NCBI RefSeq assembly: GCF_018413525.1
Contig: NZ_JAHCDD010000013.1
Location: 1 to 64,000 of the forward strand
Direction: 5' to 3'
Length of the DNA stretch: 64,000 nt
Origin: Acidovorax sp. CCYZU-2555
GTDB taxonomy: Bacteria > Pseudomonadota > Gammaproteobacteria > Burkholderiales > Burkholderiaceae_C
This document shows positions 1-63,265 of the stretch, piece by piece; the stretch's first letter is position 1, and every line of letters begins with the position of its first letter. Below the pieces are notes generated by a model. It worked only from the letters and a program-made list of their open reading frames with translations. It was not told the DNA's origin and made no database searches. A program made the translations under genes and the position numbers.

Positions 1-2
1 AA

Positions 3-632
3 TTCAAGCCGCTGCACCAGATCAATCCGCTGCGCCTGGAATGGATCAACGGCATCGCGCCCCTGCATGACCGCGACGTGCTCGATGTGGGCTGCGGCGG
101 CGGCATTCTGGCCGATTCGATGGCGCGCAAAGGCGCCGTTGTGACCGGAATCGACCTCGCAACCAAGTCGCTGCGCGTGGCGCAACTGCATGCGCTGGAA
201 GCCGAAACGCCGCGCATTCGCTACGAAGAAGTGGCCGTGGAAGCACTGGCCGCACGCCAGCCCGCGAGCTTCGATGTGGTCACCTGCATGGAGATGCTGG
301 AGCATGTTCCCGACCCCGAATCGGTGGTCAAGGCCTGCGCAGACCTCGTAAAACCCGGTGGATGGGTCTTTTTTTCGACCTTGAATAGAAACGTTCAATC
401 TTTTGCGCAAGCAATTGTTGCAGCCGAGTACTTGCTCAACCTGCTGCCACGTGGTACGCACGAATACGCAAAAATGATCAAGCCCAGCGAGCTTGCCGGC
501 TTCTGCCGCAGCGCCGGGCTCAACGTGCTGCACGCCAAGGGCTTGCAGCACAACCCGATCACCGGCCGCTACTGGCTCAGCGCCAATACCAGCGTCAACT
601 ACATGATCGCCACGCAAAGGCCAGCGCAATGA
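3..632 (+). CDS. ubiG: UbiG, ubiquinone biosynthesis O-methyltransferase (5' end outside window)
   Basis: SAM-dependent methyltransferase that O-methylates ubiquinone precursors at two steps of the pathway. The open frame runs from base 3, so the N terminus lies before the window. The glycine-rich SAM-binding motif (VLDVGCGGGILAD) comes about 28 residues in, followed by GIDLA and the family-typical VEALA, FDVVTCMEMLEHV and PGGWVFFSTLNRN stretches. The C terminus (ITGRYWLS...NYMIATQ) matches the usual UbiG end. The stop overlaps the gph start by 4 bases, so the two genes are probably one operon. The codon use looks like that of the host chromosome. Confidence 0.93.
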   Translation, partial: FKPLHQINPLRLEWINGIAPLHDRDVLDVGCGGGILADSMARKGAVVTGIDLATKSLRVAQLHALEAETPRIRYEEVAVEALAARQPASFDVVTCMEMLEHVPDPESVVKACADLVKPGGWVFFSTLNRNVQSFAQAIVAAEYLLNLLPRGTHEYAKMIKPSELAGFCRSAGLNVLHAKGLQHNPITGRYWLSANTSVNYMIATQRPAQ

Positions 633-1315: not shown

Positions 1316-1693
1316 GGGGCTGTCCTGGTTTCGACGTGGGTTCGGAGCCGGTGTGGTGCATGTCGAGCTTGAATGACGCTCGTAAATCTCCGTTCAAAAA
1401 AACTAACTGCAAACGACGAACGTTTCGCACTCGCCGCTTAATCCGGTGAGCTTTGCAACAGCACGTTGATGGGCTGGGCAAGGGGGTCGCAAGACTTCCA
1501 GGCTGCAAAGGAATCTTCATCAACTGGTTCTGTGCCGGGTACCTTGGTATGGAACAAGAAAATAGGGTACTGGCTTTGTTCACAGCGTGTGCCTGCGCGG
1601 TGACCGAGGCGAGATTTAAATCAGAACACTAAACATGTAGATCTGCCCGGTAAAGGCTTGCGGACGCGGGTTCAATTCCCGCCAGCTCCACCA
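1316..1693 (+). ncRNA. ssrA: Transfer-messenger RNA (tmRNA)
   Basis: Rescues stalled ribosomes. The 5' end GGGGCUG pairs with CAGCUCC at the 3' end (one G-U pair), followed by discriminator A and an encoded CCA at 1691-1693. The T-arm GGUUCAAUUCCC is present. The tag reading frame starts at GCA 1409-1411, encodes ANDERFALAA and stops at TAA 1439-1441. The last 29 bases form part of the phage attachment core, so integration leaves a complete tmRNA on the left side. Confidence 0.97.
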
Positions 1694-1698
1694 CCATA
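1665..1698 (+). repeat. attL core, 34-bp direct repeat of ssrA 3' end
   Basis: This 34-bp stretch, from the T-arm of ssrA to 5 bases past its CCA end, recurs exactly at 59007-59040. Bases just outside the two copies differ (A1664 against G59006, C1699 against A59041), which fixes the limits. The integrase gene lies immediately inside this end. Confidence 0.95.
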
Positions 1699-1810: not shown

Positions 1811-2986
1811 TCAGCCGACGGCCTGCAGTATCGCCTTGGGCTTCTGGTAGTCCTCGCGGATGAACTTGCCATAGGTGCGAAACACCATCTCAACGTCCTC
1901 ATGCCCCAGTTGCTGGGCCACGTACCAGGGGTTGGCGCCGGCGGTCAGCAGCGTTGACGCGTAGGTGTGCCGGATTTGGTAGGGGTTGCGGTACTCGATG
2001 CCGGACCTGGCCATGATGGGCAGCCAGGCCGTCTTGCGAATCTGAGCATCCGTATCCCAGGGTTTCAGCGTCCGTGGGTTGAGCCAAATCCGTTCACCGC
2101 GCAGCTGGCTCATCGGCTTCTGCGCCCTCAACGCGTCCAGCGCTTCGGGGTTGAGGTCGACTGTTCGGATGCCGGCCGCAGTTTTTGGCGCCTTGAGCAC
2201 GCCTGCCACCTGATTTTGTTCGATTCGCGCCGTCGCCTTGTCAAAATCGACGTGCCGCCATTCCAGCGCCTGTAGCTCACCAGGGCGCAGGCCAGTGTTG
2301 AACCAGAACTGGAACATCGGCCTCTCATCGAGCCGGCATGCCTCAAGGATCGTGATGCGCTCAGCCTGCGTGAAAGGCTGGATCACGTAATCACTCGCTT
2401 TGCTGGTCTGGCGGATGAGCTTCACCAGCGCGATGCGGTCAAAAGGGTTGAACTCGATCAGCCCATCGTTGAGTGCATCTTCCATGACGGACCGAAGAGG
2501 AATCAGCATATTGCGGATGGCCTTGCTGGTGCAATCCATCTCGCTCACCCATTCTCGCAGGGCACTGGGCGTGACCTCGTGCAGCTTCCATCCGTGCCAA
2601 TGGCGCATGCGCTCACCCGTGATGCTCTTGGCGTAGCCGTTGCAAGTGGCCTTGCTCATCTTCCCGTTCAACACCTGCTTCTGGTACAGCGCCAGTTGCT
2701 TTTCCAGCATGTCTTCCATGAGGGAAGCTCCCGGGGCGGGGCGCTTCGCCTTGGGGCTTTCCGGAAAATAGTCGGCATATTCGAACTTGCCATCGGCAAT
2801 TTTTCGGCGGATTTCATTGCGCAGATTGGCTGCGTATTGGATGGCGTTTTTGGTAATTGGGCCTTCTGGCATGAGCTCGCGGCATTGCTCACCACCATAG
2901 GTGAAAAAAATCTGCAGCCGCGGCCCGGACTTCATTTCTCGGAGGGTTACCCCCGGTGGGGTTGTGTGGCTTGTCTTGCGATCCAT
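1811..2986 (-). CDS. int: Tyrosine-recombinase integrase
   Basis: Site-specific recombinase expected to act on the ssrA att site. The 391-aa product has an N-terminal arm-binding region, a SAM-like core-binding domain (about 90-190) and a C-terminal catalytic domain. Visible active-site residues are R234 (NTGLRPGE), R339 (YQIRHTYAS, with Y where box II often has H), H362 (QQLGHE) and the nucleophile Y372 (RTYGKF). A longer upstream frame exists, but the ATG at 2986 has GGAAG 8 nt upstream and overlaps the xis 3' end by 40 bases, so it is preferred. A position next to attL is typical for a phage integrase. Confidence 0.93.
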   Translation of the reverse strand: MDRKTSHTTPPGVTLREMKSGPRLQIFFTYGGEQCRELMPEGPITKNAIQYAANLRNEIRRKIADGKFEYADYFPESPKAKRPAPGASLMEDMLEKQLALYQKQVLNGKMSKATCNGYAKSITGERMRHWHGWKLHEVTPSALREWVSEMDCTSKAIRNMLIPLRSVMEDALNDGLIEFNPFDRIALVKLIRQTSKASDYVIQPFTQAERITILEACRLDERPMFQFWFNTGLRPGELQALEWRHVDFDKATARIEQNQVAGVLKAPKTAAGIRTVDLNPEALDALRAQKPMSQLRGERIWLNPRTLKPWDTDAQIRKTAWLPIMARSGIEYRNPYQIRHTYASTLLTAGANPWYVAQQLGHEDVEMVFRTYGKFIREDYQKPKAILQAVG

Positions 2987-3195
2987 GCGTCTGCTTCCTT
3001 GATATTGACGTGCAACCGATTTGCCACGGTGGCAATGTGTTTTCCCGCCAACCACCAGCCTTTCTTGCGGTAGTGGCGAACAGTTTCGACAGGGGTGCCG
3101 GTCAGCTCGAAATACTTCTCGGCGCGCACCCAAACGGGTTCAACGGCCTGCACGGTAGTGCCTGCAGATGCTTGCTCTGTAACTTTGTGTTTCAT
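2947..3195 (-). CDS. xis: Excisionase-like small DNA-binding protein
   Basis: 82-aa protein with an AlpA/excisionase-type winged-helix region: WVRAEKYFELTG, VETVRHYRKKGWW, then HVNIKEADAWIARQ. Such proteins direct integrase towards excision. It is immediately upstream of int on the same strand and overlaps it, as in many prophages. Its ATG overlaps the stop of a 32-codon frame. Identification rests on fold-like pattern and position, not on a catalytic motif. Confidence 0.8.
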   Translation of the reverse strand: MKHKVTEQASAGTTVQAVEPVWVRAEKYFELTGTPVETVRHYRKKGWWLAGKHIATVANRLHVNIKEADAWIARQATQPHRG

Positions 3196-17764: not shown

Positions 17765-18748
17765 TTAGCGAGGAGCCTCCAGAAGCGATACGGCTTGATT
17801 GACAAACTCTACAGGCAGCGTGGAGTCCTTCACTTTAGTATGCAGGTAGTTTTTGAGCCGGCCGCCCTTGACATAATTTTCACGAAACCACTTCTGGAAC
17901 TCGCCAAGTGCCATCTCAGGGTAGCACCATGGCTCTTGGGGGTTACTTGCGGCTTGAGGATAGTATTCCGGATAGTTGTGCTTGTAGTGAATGCGTTGGC
18001 CATATATGGAACTACCGTCGATAGTTTTCCAGTATGCAGACCAGCATTGGCCTACGCTAATGTCCGGAACAAATTTTTTATGAATGTGCAAACCACGCTG
18101 CCCGAGGCTGACGATCAAGTCCGCAATTTGCTTGAAGACGCTAAAATACCCTTCTGGTACGGAGTCAAAATTCAATGAAACTCGATCATGAAAATTTTGC
18201 CAAAGTGCATTTTTTTCTGCCTCCGGTTTGTATCCGCAGCCATCGTAGATGAACTGTCGAAATGACTTTCGTGCCAAAAGGCGAAAATTTCTTTGTGCGA
18301 CCTCAGGGCTGCCTTGCTTTGCGTCAAATGCGTAGTATTCAAGAAGGGCCATGCACACTGCATCTGTATAAACCGGAACCTCGCCACTGGGGCCCACTGT
18401 TAATACATGAAGTGTATTGCCAAAAAAATTTTGTTCAGCCAATAGCTCATTAATGCGAGCCCCACGGGGCTTAGTACGCTCTTCACTCCAGTTGGATGTG
18501 AGGCGCGACAACATTCCGGAGTCAACTCCGCAAAGTCGTGCAAGTCCCCGGAGATGGAGATAGGGAGTACCGTCACTAAGCACCCCCATTGCCACGCCGT
18601 CAAATTCAACTTCAGTGACGGGAAAGAGCAGCCCCTGCTGCTGCCCGGAAGCAGGGGTTGTTGTGCTAACTCTTTGAATTACAACGGAATTCTCTGCTGC
18701 TCGAGGTGGTTTTTTTTGCATGCTACAAATAGCGCTTTTTGCGCTCAT
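17765..18748 (-). CDS. BRO/antirepressor-like immunity-region protein
   Basis: 327 aa from the Met at 18748 (the frame is open to 18823). The N-terminal third (VEFDGVAMGVLSDGTPYLHL, RGLARLCGVDSGMLSRL) recalls the N-terminal domains of phage BRO/KilA-type antirepressors. The C-terminal part (YFSVFKQIADLIVSLGQRGL, SVGQCWSAYWKTIDGSS, FQKWFRENYVKGGRLKNYL) is a distinct conserved-looking domain. Its base composition is more AT-rich than the rest. Its place near the CI repressor fits an antirepressor, or a BstA-type abortive-infection protein; the sequence alone does not decide. No start has a good ribosome site. Confidence 0.65.
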   Translation of the reverse strand: MSAKSAICSMQKKPPRAAENSVVIQRVSTTTPASGQQQGLLFPVTEVEFDGVAMGVLSDGTPYLHLRGLARLCGVDSGMLSRLTSNWSEERTKPRGARINELLAEQNFFGNTLHVLTVGPSGEVPVYTDAVCMALLEYYAFDAKQGSPEVAQRNFRLLARKSFRQFIYDGCGYKPEAEKNALWQNFHDRVSLNFDSVPEGYFSVFKQIADLIVSLGQRGLHIHKKFVPDISVGQCWSAYWKTIDGSSIYGQRIHYKHNYPEYYPQAASNPQEPWCYPEMALGEFQKWFRENYVKGGRLKNYLHTKVKDSTLPVEFVNQAVSLLEAPR

Positions 18749-18884
18749 AGGTGACCATGCAGCTAGATTTACACTTTTTTGTGTATACATGCGTATACAT
18801 GAGTGTAGAATCGAGCGCTGCACAAGAAAGCAGAAGCGGATCTTTCCACGGACACACGCGACTGCGACAGATTGCTTAAAGTCA

Positions 18885-51262: not shown

Positions 51263-51337
51263 TTCTCTAAGAGGTTTTATTTTTTAAACGTTTAGTTGTT
51301 TGGTGTTGGTTGTGGGAAAACTGTAATTTATAGATCT

Positions 51338-52255
51338 ATGATTAAAGATATTCCCACTGTAGCGGAATTTGATTCCGCCGCAAAAGCCCAGTTCGATTTT
51401 GCCTGGGATATCGCTATTTCATTTTTGTTAAGCTTGGAAGAAGCGCGCGGCTATGCTGGGGTCGAAGAGGAGGATGAAAAGGCCTTCTGGGAAGCAGCAC
51501 GTCAGAGAGTAATGACAGCGCTAATCGTTACCCAGCAAGGAGTTGAACTTGCATTAAAGGGTAGAATTGTTGCAGTTAGTCCCTTTCTTCTCATTGCTGG
51601 AAGTCCTTCAGATTGGCCTAAGGATAGCACCGGAGCGGGAATAAGCTTTTCTGATTTTAGAGCAATTGATGCTCAAGATTTAATTAAAGTTCATGATGCT
51701 GTTCATGAGGAAAAGCTGAATTCTGAATTTTCTGTTCTATTTGATAGTCTCAGAAAGTTGCGTAATAAGGCGATGCATACGGTAGATAGAAATATTAATG
51801 TCTCCGTGAAGGAGGTCTTGGTAAATATTATCGAGTTTCACAAGAATTTATATGGTGATGCAAGCTGGGTTGAGACAAGGCGGGATTTTCTTTATAACTC
51901 AGCGGCCGCACGGGTATTTTTCGACACTGAACATGTCGAGGCTTTGGTTGTTAGAGAGTTTTCGGCTGTATTTAAGTTCTTGGAGCCTGCGCAAGCACTT
52001 AAGTTTTTTAATGTTAATAAACGAAGTCGCCTCTATATCTGCCCTGAGTGTAAGCATGAGGCTGATAGGTTTGATTTTTTTGAGACTAGATATGCCGTCT
52101 TAAGACCAAATGAGCCCAATTCTGAAAGTTTATTCTGTTTTGTCTGTGATTCGTTGCACAGTGTCGTGCGAGAAGACTGTTGCCAAGGCGGTTGTCCAGG
52201 CAATGTATTAAGCCTTGAATATGATATTTGTTGCACATGCGGGGAAGACCAATAA
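51338..52255 (+). CDS. HEPN-like protein with C-terminal zinc ribbon, candidate defence gene
   Basis: 305 aa, AT-rich. The helical N-terminal half carries R142-NKAM-H147 (LRKLRNKAMHTVDRN), the Rx4-6H motif of HEPN ribonucleases. The C-terminal part has CPEC, CFVC, CCQGGC and CCTC cysteine pairs, indicating one or two zinc sites. ATG 51338 is preferred to a TTG at 51296. It pairs with the DUF2971 gene. Inference: a phage-encoded RNase effector or sensor in superinfection defence. Confidence 0.7.
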   Translation: MIKDIPTVAEFDSAAKAQFDFAWDIAISFLLSLEEARGYAGVEEEDEKAFWEAARQRVMTALIVTQQGVELALKGRIVAVSPFLLIAGSPSDWPKDSTGAGISFSDFRAIDAQDLIKVHDAVHEEKLNSEFSVLFDSLRKLRNKAMHTVDRNINVSVKEVLVNIIEFHKNLYGDASWVETRRDFLYNSAAARVFFDTEHVEALVVREFSAVFKFLEPAQALKFFNVNKRSRLYICPECKHEADRFDFFETRYAVLRPNEPNSESLFCFVCDSLHSVVREDCCQGGCPGNVLSLEYDICCTCGEDQ

Positions 52256-52395: not shown

Positions 52396-52593
52396 CTAAA
52401 ACGGTGCCGGAGACCGCACGACTTCGACTGACCCCTCTCCAAAGTAGATGCACTTTCCTCGGGCGTCGCGCACCGTGAAGGTGCCGGGGAACACTTCTAA
52501 CACGGTGTAGTCGGTAGGCCGCCCTTGAAGAATTCGCTCTTCTCGCTGGCGAGTGCGATGTGGGATGTAAAGCAGAGTGGGGTGCATCGGCAT
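52396..52593 (-). CDS. Small protein, paralogue of the gene at 58242
   Basis: 65 aa. The C-terminal 45 residues (DYTVLEVFPGTFTVRDARGK-C-Y-G-VEVVRSPAPF) closely match those of the protein at 58242-58472. Function unknown. It follows the umuC remnant on the same strand. Bases 52256-52395 hold a short hairpin (GCTGGC/GCCAGC) and no gene. Confidence 0.6.
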   Translation of the reverse strand: MPMHPTLLYIPHRTRQREERILQGRPTDYTVLEVFPGTFTVRDARGKCIYFGEGSVEVVRSPAPF

Positions 52594-54972: not shown

Positions 54973-55262
54973 GGCCAAGTGACACATTTAAGTGACACTA
55001 CCAGGGCAACCCAGGGTATTGACAGGCACTGGCTGATTTTTTTGGCGTGCTGCTACCCCTCGTTGCCCCCAATTACCGGCCCAAGAGGGTTCGAATGCCT
55101 CGATGCATGTCGCGCGGCCGAGGTCAGAACATCGCCTGCGATCGCGGGACCTTGACGCGCTGCGCTTTGCAAGACTTTCACCACAGGAAAACTGCAAGCA
55201 CTCATCAACTCGCGCCATGGCAAGGGGTTGATTGATTCCGGGAAATGGTGTGCACTCGCTCC
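54973..55262. other. Intergenic region between patatin and SRAP genes
   Basis: No convincing gene. It begins with two AGTGACAC direct repeats (54979-54999 region). The sequence is GC-rich afterwards. No promoter is evident enough to call. Confidence 0.4.
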
Positions 55263-55931
55263 ATGTGCAATAGATACGTCTCCCCTACGGAAACCGACAT
55301 CGAACGGTTTTGGCATATTGGCCGCGCTAACCAGCCTCGCTGGTGGCGTGAGCAGCACGTCGAGATTTTCCCCAGGGCACAAGGCCCGTTTATCCGGCGC
55401 GCGGTAGACGACTCTGGCTATAGCCGGGAAGGCGCGTCCGGCCGTTGGGGCTTGGTGGCGGGCGAGTGGAGCCTGAAATACGCCACCAACAACGCGCGCA
55501 GCGAGGAGCTGGCGAGCAAGGCCAGTTTCAAGAGACCCTGGGCAAAGGGGCAGCGCTGCATCATCCCTGCCGTCTCCTTCGATGAGCCAAATTGGGAGTC
55601 GGGACGCAACCAATGGTGGAGGTTTGCGCGGGCTGATGGTGGACTGTGGGGGCTCGCGGGGCTGTGGAACCGGTGGGCCGATCCGAAGACCGGCGAGATT
55701 TTCGAGTCGTACACCGTGCTGACAATCAACGCTGACGACCACCCCTTGATGAGGCGCATGCACAAGCCCGATCCTAAGCTGCCCGCGGATCAGCAGGACA
55801 AGCGGAGCGTGATCGCAATTGAGCGCGAAGACGTCGATCAATGGCTTGGGGGGACCATTGCCGAAGCCTCTGAACTGCTGCGTCTTGCGCCCGTTGAGGT
55901 ATTCGACGCCGGGCATGTGGCTGGCCGCTGA
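55263..55931 (+). CDS. SRAP (HMCES/YedK) protein
   Basis: 222 aa. Catalytic Cys2 in MCNRYVSPTE, WGLVAGEW, NNARSEELASKASFK, the FDE active-site segment (CIIPAVSFDEPNW) and HPLMRRMHKP. The family forms a covalent thiazolidine link with abasic sites in ssDNA. Length is normal; the frame starts at 55263, a few codons after an upstream ATG at 55245. Lies between the patatin and reverse-transcriptase genes. Confidence 0.9.
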   Translation: MCNRYVSPTETDIERFWHIGRANQPRWWREQHVEIFPRAQGPFIRRAVDDSGYSREGASGRWGLVAGEWSLKYATNNARSEELASKASFKRPWAKGQRCIIPAVSFDEPNWESGRNQWWRFARADGGLWGLAGLWNRWADPKTGEIFESYTVLTINADDHPLMRRMHKPDPKLPADQQDKRSVIAIEREDVDQWLGGTIAEASELLRLAPVEVFDAGHVAGR

Positions 55932-56100: not shown

Positions 56101-58014
56101 ATGGATAGAATAGAAAGACTACTCCGACTGGGCTACCTGCCCTCTCAGTTGCCGCCCGCATTCGGAACCACCGACGTCGCCGTCCACCACGCAGCTCTCT
56201 ATTCCGCATGGATCGCGCTGGCTCCGAAAAACGCGAAAGCCCGCAAGTCAAAATCCGAATTGTTCAGCGTAGCGCGAGCTGGCCATCAGCGTCGGGCGAC
56301 CAGTCTGCCCAACCCCATTGCCCAAACTTACCTCAGCAAGGCAATTGTCGACAACTGGGCTAGCATGATCGGCCAATTTAGGCGGTCGAAATTAAGTGCG
56401 AGTCATCCTAGATTTCGTCGTGATTCCAGCCGCGCCGCTAGTTTGCCCGCAATGCAAACCCTTTACGAGCGTAGGCTGTTGCAGGGAGCGGGCTACCGAT
56501 TCGTGCTTCGTACAGACATTTCGCGTTTTTTCCCCACCATTTACACGCATTCAATACCATGGGCCCTTCACGGCAAGGCGCTAGCAAAGAAGAACAGATC
56601 CATCACGCCAAAGTTCTTCGGGAACCTCCTTGATCAAGCGGTTCGTCAAGGTCAGGATGAACAGACGTTCGGGCTCCCGATTGGCCCTGACACCTCGCAC
56701 ATTATTGCTGAATGCATCGCTACCTCGATCGATATCGAGTTGACCAAGAGGCTTGGTGTTCGTCCCGCTGGCTTCCGCTATGTGGATGATTACTACCTTT
56801 TTTTTGAATCGTATGATTCTGCAAAGAAGGCGCTCGCGCACCTTGTTCTCTGTCTGAAAGATTTTGAGCTTCAAATCAACTTTGAGAAGACGAAGGTGTG
56901 TCGAATCGAAGAATTAGAAGAGGATTCTTGGACTCATGCGCTTAGAAGCTTTGACATTGCAGCAACCGGTCAGCGCCAACGCTCTGACGTCAATCATTTC
57001 TTCGAATTAGCCCGTGATCTTGCGAAGCGCCACACAAGTGACGGTGTGATGGCTTACGCTCTGAGGCGCGTCGGCTCAGTCATTATCCGAAAGGAAAATT
57101 GGGACTCGTTTGAAGCACAACTGTGCATGACTGCAGCTGCGCATCCAGTGACGCTTCAAGCATTCACGCGTCTTCTCTCTACGTATTCTGGCCTAGGCTT
57201 TCCCATTGGAAAACAGCGTCTATCACGCCTAGTGAATTCGCTCATCGAAGAGCATGCGCCCCTCGAGCACCATAGTGAGGTGGCGTGGTGCCTGTGGCTT
57301 TGTAAAGAGCTTTCGTTAACTTTGACGTCCGTCAACGTAGATATCGTTGTCGCAATGAATTCTTCAGTTTGCGTCTTGATCCTTTTGGATCTTGGTGATG
57401 CCGGATTACTGCTCAAAGCGCCATCTATCGCGCGATTCAGGCTGCTTGAGGACGCCGATGCGCTATGGGATGACCTTTGGATGCTGAGCTACGAGGCTGG
57501 GGTGCGAGGTTGGGGTGGTCTCTCCGAAATTCATGTAAGGGCGGATCCGCATTTTGAGGAAATGCGAAAGCGCAACGTGCGCTTTTACGACCCTGCTGCC
57601 TCGATCGCACCATTGTTTACGCCAAAACCCAACGCGTTGAAGCAGCACAATTTCAAAACGATCGCCGAGCTATTCAGTTTAGACAATCTCGACGAGGTGT
57701 TCGAGCACGACGACGAGGAAGACATATACGGTAGTCCGTTCGAAGAGCCGGAAGACGAACCGGACGATGAGCCGGAAGACGAACCGGAAGACGAGCCGGA
57801 AGACGAGCCGGAAGACGAGCCGGAAGACGAGCCGGAAGACGAGCCGGAAGACGAGCCGGAAGACGAGCCGGAAGACGAACCGGAAGACGAGCCGGAAGAC
57901 GAGCCGGAAGACGAGCCGGAAGACGAGCCGGAAGACGAGCCGGAAGACGAACCGGACGATGAGCCGGAAGACGAACCGGACGATGAGGCGCTGCTCGAAG
58001 ATAACGATCGATAG
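56101..58014 (+). CDS. Reverse transcriptase (DRT/UG-like) with acidic repeat tail
   Basis: 637 aa. Polymerase motifs: motif A FVLRTDISRFFPTIY (D139), motif B GLPIGPDTSH (191-200), motif C FRYVDDYYLFF (YVDD 227-230), then INFEKTKVCRIEEL. The N-terminal LLRLGYLPSQLPPAF and the long helical C-terminal domain (about 290-540) resemble the unknown-group (UG/DRT) defence reverse transcriptases rather than group II intron or retron RTs; no maturase or nuclease domain is seen. Residues 551-630 are 20 copies of a four-residue acidic unit (EDEP/DDEP). It is the last substantial gene before attR, a usual site of prophage defence genes. The exact class cannot be assigned by eye. Confidence 0.85.
   Translation: MDRIERLLRLGYLPSQLPPAFGTTDVAVHHAALYSAWIALAPKNAKARKSKSELFSVARAGHQRRATSLPNPIAQTYLSKAIVDNWASMIGQFRRSKLSASHPRFRRDSSRAASLPAMQTLYERRLLQGAGYRFVLRTDISRFFPTIYTHSIPWALHGKALAKKNRSITPKFFGNLLDQAVRQGQDEQTFGLPIGPDTSHIIAECIATSIDIELTKRLGVRPAGFRYVDDYYLFFESYDSAKKALAHLVLCLKDFELQINFEKTKVCRIEELEEDSWTHALRSFDIAATGQRQRSDVNHFFELARDLAKRHTSDGVMAYALRRVGSVIIRKENWDSFEAQLCMTAAAHPVTLQAFTRLLSTYSGLGFPIGKQRLSRLVNSLIEEHAPLEHHSEVAWCLWLCKELSLTLTSVNVDIVVAMNSSVCVLILLDLGDAGLLLKAPSIARFRLLEDADALWDDLWMLSYEAGVRGWGGLSEIHVRADPHFEEMRKRNVRFYDPAASIAPLFTPKPNALKQHNFKTIAELFSLDNLDEVFEHDDEEDIYGSPFEEPEDEPDDEPEDEPEDEPEDEPEDEPEDEPEDEPEDEPEDEPEDEPEDEPEDEPEDEPEDEPEDEPEDEPDDEPEDEPDDEALLEDNDR
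57751..57990 (+). repeat. 12-bp tandem repeat, 20 units, in the RT gene
   Basis: Unit GAAGACGAGCCG with variants ending GAACCG or beginning GACGAT; 240 bp without phase change. It encodes (E/D-D-E-P)n. Many central units are identical, so copy number is likely to vary by slippage. Confidence 0.95.
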
Positions 58015-58241: not shown

Positions 58242-58472
58242 CTAAAAAGGAGCTAGCGACCTCACGACCTCTACCGGACCAGGGCCGTAGTAGGTGCACC
58301 GACAGCGTGCGTCGCGCACTGTGAAGCGGCCCGGGAACACTTCGAAGACGGTGTAGTCGGCGGGCAACCCGGGGAGTATGTACACCAGGGGCCAGTCGTA
58401 ATTCGGATTCGGGGTGCGCAGGAGGGTGGGGTAGGTGTGGATCACTGCGGTTTTCCCGGGATCACCCACCAT
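58242..58472 (-). CDS. Small protein, paralogue of the gene at 52396
   Basis: 76 aa. The C-terminal half (ADYTVFEVFPGRFTVRDARC-R-C-Y-G-VEVVRSLAPF) matches the 52396-52593 product. The N-terminal part differs. Function unknown. It overlaps the next minus-strand gene by 31 bases. Confidence 0.6.
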   Translation of the reverse strand: MVGDPGKTAVIHTYPTLLRTPNPNYDWPLVYILPGLPADYTVFEVFPGRFTVRDARCRCTYYGPGPVEVVRSLAPF

Positions 58473-59006: not shown

Positions 59007-59040
59007 CGCGGGTTCAATTCCCGCCAGCTCCACCACCATA
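59007..59040 (+). repeat. attR core, 34-bp direct repeat
   Basis: Exact copy of 1665-1698 containing only the last 29 bases of ssrA and 5 bases beyond; no full tmRNA gene is present here. Confidence 0.95.
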
Positions 59041-59083: not shown

Positions 59084-59284
59084 TTTGGTAAATCAACAAC
59101 TTACAGTGCGCCGGCGTCCGGGTAAATTCGCTGACATCCTGGGCAGGGTGGGGGGATAAGTAGGGGGGAGAAAGCCGCGCAGTCCTATACTTTCGGGAAA
59201 TTCCCCCCACTTTCGCCCCAAACCCAGCAAGCATGCGGCTTTGCAGCCACTGGCTCTCCCCGCCCCACTTTGGAGCGTGCAATC

Positions 59285-60530
59285 ATGCTGGCTGATGCCA
59301 AGTGCCGAAATGCGATATGCCCCCCCCGAACGCAAGCGGGCGCGTTTTACCGATGCGGGCGGCCTATATCTGCAAGTGAACCCGAACGGCTCCAAGCGCT
59401 GGTTCTACAAGTACCGGGTCGAGGGCAAGGAGCAGTAGCTTGCCCTCGGAAGCTATCCAGTCGTGAGCCTGATGGCAGTGCGCAAGGCGTGCAATGCGGC
59501 GAAGCTTCAGAAGATGGAAGGGGTTGACCCGATCTAGGTCCGGAAGCTGGAAAAGCTCAAGGGTAGGTGGGAGGGCCACGATACGTTCAAGACAGTATCT
59601 CTTGAGTGGCACGCCAAGCAGGTCGAGACCTGGAGTCCTGGCCACGCTGCCCGCACCTTGCGCCAACTGGAGCGCGATCTGTTTCCTTGGCTCAAAGATA
59701 GGCCCATGGCCATCATCGAGCCCATGGAACTGCTGTAAGTACTGCAGAAGGTGGAGGACCGAGGCGCGCTGGAAACCGCTGACCGGGCATTGATGCTGGC
59801 CTGGCAGGTGTGGCGTTACTGGTTGCCCACGGCCGGCAACACCCAGCGCGACATTACCGAAGGGCTCAAAAGCCGCCTCACGCCATACCGAGGTAAGAAC
59901 TTCCCAGCCATCGTGGAACCGCAACGCTTTGGCGAGCTGCTGCGGGCTATGTACGCCTACAAGGGCGGCCCGGTTGTGCGCACGGCGCTGCTGCTGGCAC
60001 CCCTGCTCTACCAGCGTCCCGGCAACCTGCGCATGATGGAATGGGCCGAGCTGGATCTGGAGGCAGCCTTGTGGACCATCCCCAGCGCCAAGATGAAACG
60101 CTCCGTGGAGGAAAAGGAAAATAGGGATGCACATATGGTGCCCATGCCAACGCAGGCCGTGGAACTGCTGCAGGAGGTACAGCCCATCACGGGCCATGGA
60201 CGCTACGTTTTCCCCGGACAGCGCGACCACGACCGTCCTATGTCGGATAACTCAGTGCGCAGCGCGCTGTATGGCCTGAGTTTTGGCAAGGAACAGAGCT
60301 GGCACGGTTTTCGGGCTAGCGCCCGGACCGTGCTGGTGGATCAGTTGGATCTGGATCATCTGGCCATCGAAGCCAACTTGGCGCATGCAGTAAAGGATTC
60401 CAATGGCCGAAGTTATAATCGAACTAAGTATTTGTCGCAGCGCTTTGAGCAGGTGCAGCAATGGGCGGACTATTTGGACAAGCTGCGCTTGGGTGTTGAT
60501 GGAAACGAGCGTGGGCCGCGCAAAGGATAA
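59285..60530 (+). pseudogene. P4-type integrase, broken
   Basis: The frame begins MLADAKCRNAICPP, then shifts at an 8-C run (59320-59327) into ERKRARFTDAGGLYLQVNPN. In the main frame there are three further stops: TAG 59436, TAG 59535 and TAA 59736. The rest is well preserved, including catalytic residues in YQRPGNLRMMEW, WHGFRASARTVL and NRTKYLSQ. P4-type integrases commonly use ssrA or tRNA 3' ends, so this is the fossil integrase of an older island at the same site. Confidence 0.85.
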
Positions 60531-63043: not shown

Positions 63044-63265
63044 TCAGTGATCATTGCCTACGGAGTTGACGTCTCCCCCGATGTCGTTGCCGACGGAATT
63101 CACGTCTCCGCCAATGTCATTTCCCACAGAGTTGACGTCACCGCCGATGTCATTGCCCATGGAGTTCCCGGGCGGGCGATCCTCTGGCGGGTTTTTGGGG
63201 ACTCGTGGCGACTCATGGTCTTTGCCAAGATCGGTGTCCAGGTTGTCCATTGAAAAAGGTCCCAT
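63044..63265 (-). CDS. Small protein with SVGNDIGGDVN repeats
   Basis: 73 aa from ATG 63265 (MGPFSMDNLDTDLGKDHESP), with AAAGGA upstream. The C terminus is three copies of an 11-residue unit, glycine/asparagine/aspartate-rich, followed by SVGNDH. No family is recognised. Confidence 0.5.
   Translation of the reverse strand: MGPFSMDNLDTDLGKDHESPRVPKNPPEDRPPGNSMGNDIGGDVNSVGNDIGGDVNSVGNDIGGDVNSVGNDH
63063..63161 (-). repeat. 33-bp coding tandem repeat, three units
   Basis: Units at 63063-63095, 63096-63128 and 63129-63161, similar but not identical, each encoding SVGNDIGGDVN. A partial fourth unit adjoins. Confidence 0.85.

What the first reader, a model, noticed from the sequence alone, without database searches (positions are those of the whole stretch)
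56101..58014. Prophage reverse transcriptase with a 20-unit acidic repeat tail
Seen: an intact RT core (D139, YVDD 227-230) with a long helical C-terminal domain, then 80 residues of EDEP/DDEP units encoded by a 12-bp tandem repeat. Known: UG/DRT reverse transcriptases are phage-defence enzymes often carried by prophages near an att site. Inference: the tail may bind basic partners, mimic DNA, or tune activity by repeat number. I know of no described DRT with such a tail, though I cannot search.
Basis: partly seen in the sequence, partly recalled or inferred. Interest (0 to 1): 0.82.

Follow-up and report, generated by a model that had tools for sequence, protein, structure and literature searches.

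The report
Prophage antiviral DNA polymerase, acidic tail
A virus dormant in a bacterium carries what looks like a known type of antiviral DNA-making enzyme (DRT6); its long, negatively charged tail is no one-off oddity, since its eight nearest relatives found here have one too, and it begins at an unchanging tyrosine that might be where the enzyme starts its DNA.

Summary
ORF 56101-58014(+) encodes a 637-aa RT with D139, YVDD 227-230, a helical C-terminal domain and 20 tandem 12-bp units (17 EPED, 3 EPDD). It ends 1 kb inside attR of a ~57-kb prophage in ssrA (34/34-bp repeats). By profile and predicted fold it is a DRT6 (UG12)-type defence RT; the solved hexameric DRT6 (9wy8) is the best match (TM 0.85/0.97, 41% identity). 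Group II intron, one retron and DRT4 cut-offs are not met. What differs is the repeat: EPED here, ED runs or poly-D elsewhere. New: Y543, where the tail begins, is Tyr in 9 of 9, the only clade-invariant Tyr outside the folded body, so a candidate protein primer. Two relatives end in SSB-like DDLPF/DDIPF tips; this protein does not. Polymerase activity, priming on Y543, tail function and phage defence are inferences, none tested.

The parts
56101..58014 (+). DRT6-type reverse transcriptase gene, 637 aa
56515..56517 (+). codon of catalytic Asp D139
   Evidence: invariant in alignments
56779..56790 (+). YVDD active-site motif, aa 227-230
57697..57732 (+). start of the acidic tail, VFEHDDEEDIYG (aa 533-544); Y543 (57727-57729) is Tyr in 9 of 9 clade members
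57745..57984 (+). 20 tandem 12-bp units coding 17 EPED and 3 EPDD (aa 549-628)
57985..58011 (+). C-terminal end EALLEDNDR; no SSB-like tip, no terminal Tyr
1665..1698 (+). attL, 3' end of ssrA (tmRNA 1316-1693)
   Evidence: 34/34 bp repeat; tmRNA
59007..59040 (+). attR, copy of the ssrA 3' end; the RT gene ends 1.0 kb before it
1811..3133 (-). prophage integrase (phrog_1, 169.5 bits)
55245..55931 (+). SRAP family gene directly upstream of the RT
   Evidence: PF02586 97.6 bits
53086..54972 (+). patatin-like phospholipase gene in the same accessory region
   Evidence: PF01734 63 bits

Best explanation
The gene is a prophage accessory ('moron') DRT6/UG12 reverse transcriptase. Shown here: DRT6 profile and predicted fold, intact catalytic residues, a clade-wide acidic and probably disordered tail, and an invariant tyrosine where that tail begins. 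Inferred from DRT4/DRT6, AbiK, DRT3b and DRT9: it assembles as a hexamer and makes ssDNA without a template, primed on one of its own residues; host exonuclease keeps the product low, and a phage ssDNA or 3'-end binding protein lets it accumulate and abort infection. Proposed for the tail: Y543 on the flexible tail swings into the active site as the primer, and the polyanion behind it (net about -62 over aa 550-637) competes with the growing DNA for the basic body surface or for basic partners, restraining idle activity and product retention. Selection would hold the charge and the Tyr rather than the sequence, so simple codon repeats (here a 12-bp unit) can expand freely. My estimates: DRT6 type 0.93; template-independent protein-primed synthesis 0.75; Y543 as primer 0.35; polyanion as electrostatic regulator 0.4.
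For: PADLOC Drt6 570 bits over aa 1-523. Foldseek best hit 9wy8 'hexameric DRT6', TM 0.85/0.97; VIA-align Z 45.2, rmsd 1.5 over 494 residues. Tree from body columns: this protein + L060 + L061 100/98; nine-member clade with 9wy8 98/99. All 9 tails acidic; 0 of 281 unrelated ORFs as acidic. In 9wy8 the entry holds 495 residues, aligned 1..495, while its RT part is 564 long (chain 962 from residue 399), so by inference the tail is unseen. The Y543 column is Tyr in 9 of 9; the other 5 clade-invariant Tyr (148, 319, 362, 464, 496) lie in the body; spacing from F495 is 44-54 residues in all nine. Primers on C-terminal tails are reported for DRT9 (Y496/Y498; PMC12483538, passages) and DRT3b (Y666; PMC13174585, passages). 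A Tyr lies in the last 5 residues of 14 of 24 proteins, this one counted, against 4.5-5 expected. Aa 1-505 have K+R 64 and D+E 54, aa 506-637 have K+R 4 and D+E 75. DRT4/DRT6 activity as summarised in PMC13213688 (part 1 of 2 read) and PMC13314766 (passages).
Against: No activity or defence was tested. The DRT4 and DRT6 primary papers are not held, so the priming residue they may report is unknown to me. AbiK primes on an N-terminal Tyr44, AbiA on a mid-protein loop, DRT1 on a Ser. AlphaFold2 does not place Y543: residues 539-566 are under pLDDT 50, and all of residues 506-541 of L063 are too. Five of the eight clade members whose end was seen (L060, L061, L062, L064, L067) also have a Tyr in the last five residues that could be the primer instead; this protein, L002 and L063 do not. 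One relative outside the clade, L068, has an equally acidic end (-19 over 70 aa), so the trait is not exclusive. A family-wide tail could be passive. Tails align poorly, and the nine rows include a near-identical pair (L064/L067, 559 of 572 residues).
Confidence: 0.45

Rival explanations
1. SSB-tail mimic: the acidic tail imitates the C-terminal tail of bacterial SSB and docks SSB partners such as exonuclease I on the enzyme, so that its own DNA product is trimmed in healthy cells until a phage 3'-end binder blocks trimming.
For: Two relatives on separate branches end in SSB-like tips, L065 ...FFDDDDDDDLPF and L002 ...DEFIDDIPF; 2 of 25 proteins against 0.0009 expected. Host SSB ends FDDMDDDIPF and the host has an ExoI-type gene (PF08411 305 bits). 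SSB-Ct DDDIPF binds DnaG, Pol III chi, PriA and exonuclease I (PMC5872125, abstract and introduction passages). ExoI degrades the DRT9 product, and delta-sbcB cells could not be transformed with active DRT9 (PMC12483538, passages).
Against: This protein ends EALLEDNDR with no hydrophobic tip; 23 of 25 proteins, this one counted, lack one. The expectation is post hoc, and L065's sister L069 ends EEAPL.
Confidence: 0.15
2. Polyanionic decoy for phage or host basic DNA-binding proteins (the trigger sensor): the tail binds the phage ssDNA-binding activator as ssDNA would.
For: ORF55, a phage DNA-binding protein, is reported to activate DRT4 and DRT6 (PMC13213688; PMC13314766, passages); charge is kept while sequence is not.
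Against: DRT4 shares ORF55 activation, yet the NCBIfam Drt4 model ends at residue 495 of this protein, before the tail, although the UG15 crystal structure goes on about 30 residues beyond the aligned part. No binding was tested.
Confidence: 0.15
3. Passive feature: a disordered end on which slippage of simple acidic codon repeats is tolerated and which only aids solubility.
For: The array is 92% uniform; lineages have different repeats; the tail is disordered in models and apparently unmodelled in 9wy8.
Against: 9 of 9 clade members keep the charge and the Tyr, the variable columns are all third codon positions, and 0 of 281 unrelated ORFs are as acidic.
Confidence: 0.25

Closest known systems
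DRT6 (UG12), solved as 9wy8
   Same: Full-length sequence match (6e-131), fold TM 0.85/0.97, catalytic YVDD, acidic C-terminal tail with the matching tyrosine (DEEYFD there, DIYG here)
   Different: 41% identity; after F495 this protein has 142 aa, net -72, in EPED units with proline; 9wy8 has 69 printed aa, net -29 (5 more not printed), in Asp/Glu runs
DRT4 (UG15), 9vdo/9l9s
   Same: Same two-domain fold, Z 31-34; single-gene RT (PMC13213688); conserved active site
   Different: 22-24% identity; NCBIfam Drt4 222.7 bits, cut-off 450, and that model stops at residue 495, before the tail
AbiK / Abi-P2
   Same: RT plus helical domain; protein-primed untemplated synthesis in AbiK (PMC9508834, passages); Z 22-29
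   Different: 16-22% identity; AbiK primes on N-terminal Tyr44, and the N-terminal Tyr here (Y12, Y34) are not invariant in the clade
DRT9 and DRT3b C-terminal priming tyrosines
   Same: Conserved Tyr on a C-terminal tail
   Different: There the Tyr is at or near the end of the protein; here 94 residues, mostly acidic, follow it. DRT9 needs an ncRNA; Rfam found none here beside tmRNA
SSB C-terminal tip (DDDIPF)
   Same: Acidic, probably disordered tail; two relatives share the tip
   Different: This protein lacks the tip

Membership tests
DRT6 (UG12) | Full-length profile match | tested here: met
   PADLOC PDLC03748 Drt6 570 bits, aa 1-523 on 1-497/511. A model named Drt4 (PDLC02179) scores 599, but it also scores solved DRT6 higher than the Drt6 model does (763 against 613), so the label does not separate them
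DRT6 (UG12) | Fold of the solved DRT6 | tested here: met
   9wy8 best hit, TM 0.85/0.97, Z 45.2
DRT6 (UG12) | Catalytic Asp residues (D139, YVDD) | tested here: met
DRT6 (UG12) | Hexameric assembly | not testable with these tools
   only a monomer was predicted
DRT6 (UG12) | Antiphage activity, activation by an ORF55-like phage protein | not testable with these tools
   experiment needed
DRT4 (UG15) | NCBIfam equivalog cut-off 450 bits | tested here: not met
   222.7 bits
Group II intron RT | TIGR04416 cut-off 300 bits | tested here: not met
   41.9 bits
Retron RT | Retron St85 RT model cut-off 235 bits | tested here: not met
   28.5 bits, the only retron model listed at E<=0.1; no retron RNA family by Rfam
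Protein with SSB-Ct tip | Acidic residues then I/L-P-F at the C-terminus | tested here: not met
   this protein ends EALLEDNDR; met in L002 and L065
C-terminal tyrosine-primed DRT | Conserved Tyr on a flexible C-terminal tail | tested here: met
   Y543, 9 of 9 in the clade; pLDDT under 50 there
C-terminal tyrosine-primed DRT | Covalent DNA on that Tyr | not testable with these tools
   experiment needed

The most novel reading that the evidence does not exclude
DRT6-type enzymes carry their DNA primer tyrosine on a disordered arm followed by a DNA- or SSB-tail-mimicking polyanion, an on-board brake that recruits or imitates the ssDNA machinery (exonuclease I, SSB partners, phage ssDNA binders) and is released by infection; tail length, set by codon-repeat number, tunes the trigger threshold.
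Probability: 0.15. Interest if true: 0.78.

Novelty: new variant of a known kind. Interest (0 to 1): 0.5.

Why it matters
The two reviews seen here describe the product chemistry and mechanism of DRT6 as unresolved, and its tail appears to be absent from the solved model. This comparison names one residue (Y543; the same column in solved DRT6) and one segment to mutate, and gives a natural length series (50 to 142 residues after F495) with which to test whether a polyanionic tail sets the activation threshold of an antiviral polymerase.

Tried and rejected
Uniqueness of the tail: rejected. Group II intron and retron St85 assignment: cut-offs not met. Canonical DRT4: NCBIfam cut-off not met. 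Associated ncRNA: Rfam found only tmRNA in the window at gathering scores; DRT6 is called single-gene in PMC13213688. Promoter and terminator scan near the gene: counts within the spread of shuffles.

Close copies or strain alleles: none found. Counts include the window's own genome where it belongs to the group. Genus 3 of 53 genomes at E<=0.001, of which only the window's own is full length; family 3 of 250 at 1e-50; order 7 of 399 at 1e-30; class 4 of 369 at 1e-20; phylum 7 of 398 at 1e-30; order of G307 1 of 109 and family of G897 1 of 120, in each case the centre itself. E. coli genomes: none for the window gene (distant mode) or for L064 and L062 (near mode). Phage records: 9, none covering 80%; the prophage's right 25 kb has no near match there. 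Plasmids: 6 of 210 matching records cover 80%, at 26.5-26.7% identity. Genome contigs: 1 relative. Viral contigs: none with the single protein, 36, 20 and 23 loci with alignments, largely the same contigs, and only itself with L025 as query. So repeat number between strains could not be compared.

Whether the predicted structure puts Y543 at the active site: not answered (disordered, and no coordinates in the Python box). In this protein's model a short strand at 534-536, just before Y543, is placed at middling confidence, but the matching part of L063 is wholly disordered. A first background for tail charge (258 ORFs, minimum -12) had dropped ORFs holding strings such as DDF, which biases against acidic ones; it was redone without that filter: 345 ORFs, 64 RT relatives removed by profile, 281 left, minimum -12. 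These are stop-to-stop frames of 200 aa or more and may include spurious ones. Tail-charge exception: L068, outside the clade (net -25 in 145 aa, -19 over the last 70). The 25 proteins (this one and 24 relatives) were chosen from full-length relatives; shorter and many 25-32% matches were left out. Tree and alignments rest on few sequences.

Literature: the searches 'reverse transcriptase + acidic tail + anti-phage' (0 papers), 'defense-associated reverse transcriptase + acidic' (1, on Listeria genomes, listing only) and 'DRT6' (6 papers, 2 of them on DRTs) showed no description of the tail. The DRT6 cryo-EM paper and the DRT4 paper are not held, so either may mention it.

Full report
What was checked. 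The ORF, catalytic residues and repeat are as described. The array is 20 complete units, aa 549-628, 17 EPED and 3 EPDD; the variable columns are all third codon positions, and all changes keep the acid. A DNA search found the repeat nowhere else in the host genome. The genome is a 151-contig draft, so the unit count carries assembly doubt.

Where it sits. The 3' end of ssrA (tmRNA 1316-1693) is repeated 34/34 bp at 59007-59040. Between the repeats lie an integrase (1811-3133), RecE, RecT, a CI-like repressor and a primosomal protein, BstA (376 bits), and terminase, portal, head morphogenesis, tape measure and spanin genes. The RT is the last large gene before attR, behind a patatin gene and an SRAP gene. 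G+C over 56-58 kb is 52-55%, against 59-68% over 28-49 kb. Relatives also sit among phage genes: in L061 the RT lies, on the opposite strand, between portal and terminase genes; L062 has a portal gene and L064 a tape-measure gene on the same contig.

What it is. PADLOC scores: PDLC02179 'Drt4' 599, Drt6 570. The solved DRT6 shows the same order (763, 613), so the 'Drt4' label of that model is not evidence for DRT4; the NCBIfam Drt4 cut-off is missed by half. PDB sequence search: 9wy8 6e-131, UG15/DRT4 about 3e-27, AbiK 2e-18. AlphaFold2 with 15 sequences: pLDDT 86.5, pTM 0.87. Foldseek: 9wy8 'Cryo-EM structure of the hexameric DRT6' TM 0.85/0.97; UG15/DRT4 about 0.72; AbiK up to 0.67 (TM by query length); VIA-align Z 45.2, 34.0 and 28.9. 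I file it as DRT6 type; hexamer and function were not testable.

The tail in relatives. 25 proteins were compared: this one, 23 from fetched loci, and 9wy8. A tree from body columns only gives a nine-member clade (98/99): this protein, L060, L061, L002, L062, L063, 9wy8, L064, L067; L064 and L067 share 559 of 572 residues. Residues after F495, in that order: 142 (net -72), 89 (-31), 112 (-51), 76 (-21), 64 (-15), 50 (-19), 69 (-29; the last 5 residues of 9wy8 were not printed), 72 (-20), 72 (-20). The 16 rows outside the clade run from +5 to -14, with one exception at -25 (L068). Over the last 70 residues the clade spans -13 to -49, the outside rows +1 to -12 except L068 at -19, and 0 of 281 unrelated ORFs from the same loci reach -13. 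The repeats differ: EPED here, ED runs in L060 and L061, poly-D and DE in 9wy8. The 9wy8 entry holds 495 residues, aligned 1..495, of a 564-residue RT part, so residues 496-564 are by inference not modelled.

The tyrosine. In the 25-row alignment the Y543 column is Tyr in 9 of 9 clade members (EDIYG, PNDYG, PSGYG, SEGYG, DEEYF); five other clade-invariant Tyr are in the body. It lies 44-54 residues after F495 in each. Over all rows a Tyr often lies in the last five residues (14 of 24, this protein counted and 9wy8 left out, against 4.5-5 expected), for example NEYE, DEYS, HNYD and ENYE, resembling the C-terminal-tail peptide of DRT9 with Y496 and Y498 and the C-terminal Y666 of DRT3b. Inference: Y543 is the equivalent primer and the acidic run an extension behind it. 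L063, whose Tyr is the seventh residue from its end, shows the short form. Against: priming sites differ in AbiK, AbiA and DRT1; both models leave the site disordered; and 5 of the 8 clade members whose end was seen have a further Tyr in the last five residues, while this protein, L002 and L063 do not.

SSB-like tips. L065 ends FFDDDDDDDLPF and L002 ends DEFIDDIPF, 2 of 25 proteins against 0.0009 expected from tail composition, a post hoc figure. Host SSB ends DDDIPF, and an ExoI-type gene is present. Since ExoI silences DRT9 and binds SSB-Ct, tip-bearing relatives may recruit it. The window's protein has no such tip, so this is a lead for the family, not a claim for this gene.

Mechanism. DRT4 is reported to make random ssDNA, stabilised by phage ORF55, which also activates DRT6 (reviews; primary papers not held). 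The reading I put first is a protein-primed, untemplated DNA polymerase whose acidic arm presents the primer tyrosine and restrains the basic body by charge. Steps shown: family, catalytic residues, charge split, clade-wide tail, invariant Tyr. Steps inferred: polymerase activity, priming on Y543, regulation by the tail, antiphage effect.

Novelty. A known kind of enzyme; the clade-wide acidic tail with an invariant Tyr was not found described in the searches made, with the DRT6 paper unread.

Noticed in passing
window 17765-18823 (-): BstA abortive-infection protein gene (PADLOC 376 bits) in the same prophage.
   Followed up: no
window 51296-52255 (+): Gene in a 41% G+C dip with a weak match to candidate defence model HEC-08 (25.5 bits) and DUF3644 (17.5 bits).
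   Followed up: no
window 52396-52593 (-) and 58242-58472 (-): Two small paralogous ORFs (38 of 63 residues identical; 119 bp at 75% DNA identity) in the same orientation flank the patatin-SRAP-RT segment, perhaps edges of an exchangeable cargo cassette.
   Followed up: partly
window 59241-60530 (+): Interrupted integrase reading frame just outside attR, perhaps the remnant of a second element at ssrA.
   Followed up: partly
L065:5454-7211 and L002:5001-6725: DRT6-type RTs ending in SSB-like tips DDDDDLPF and FIDDIPF.
   Followed up: partly
L061:8001-9827: DRT6 relative between portal and terminase genes, on the opposite strand, in a viral contig.
   Followed up: yes
window 63051-63166: 33-bp tandem repeat, 3.5 copies, outside the prophage.
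   Followed up: no
L083 (Sinorhizobium meliloti plasmid pEm1132a) 580-2283: Distant plasmid-borne relative, also with an acidic tail, ending ADDGY, next to an ATP-dependent helicase gene.
   Followed up: no
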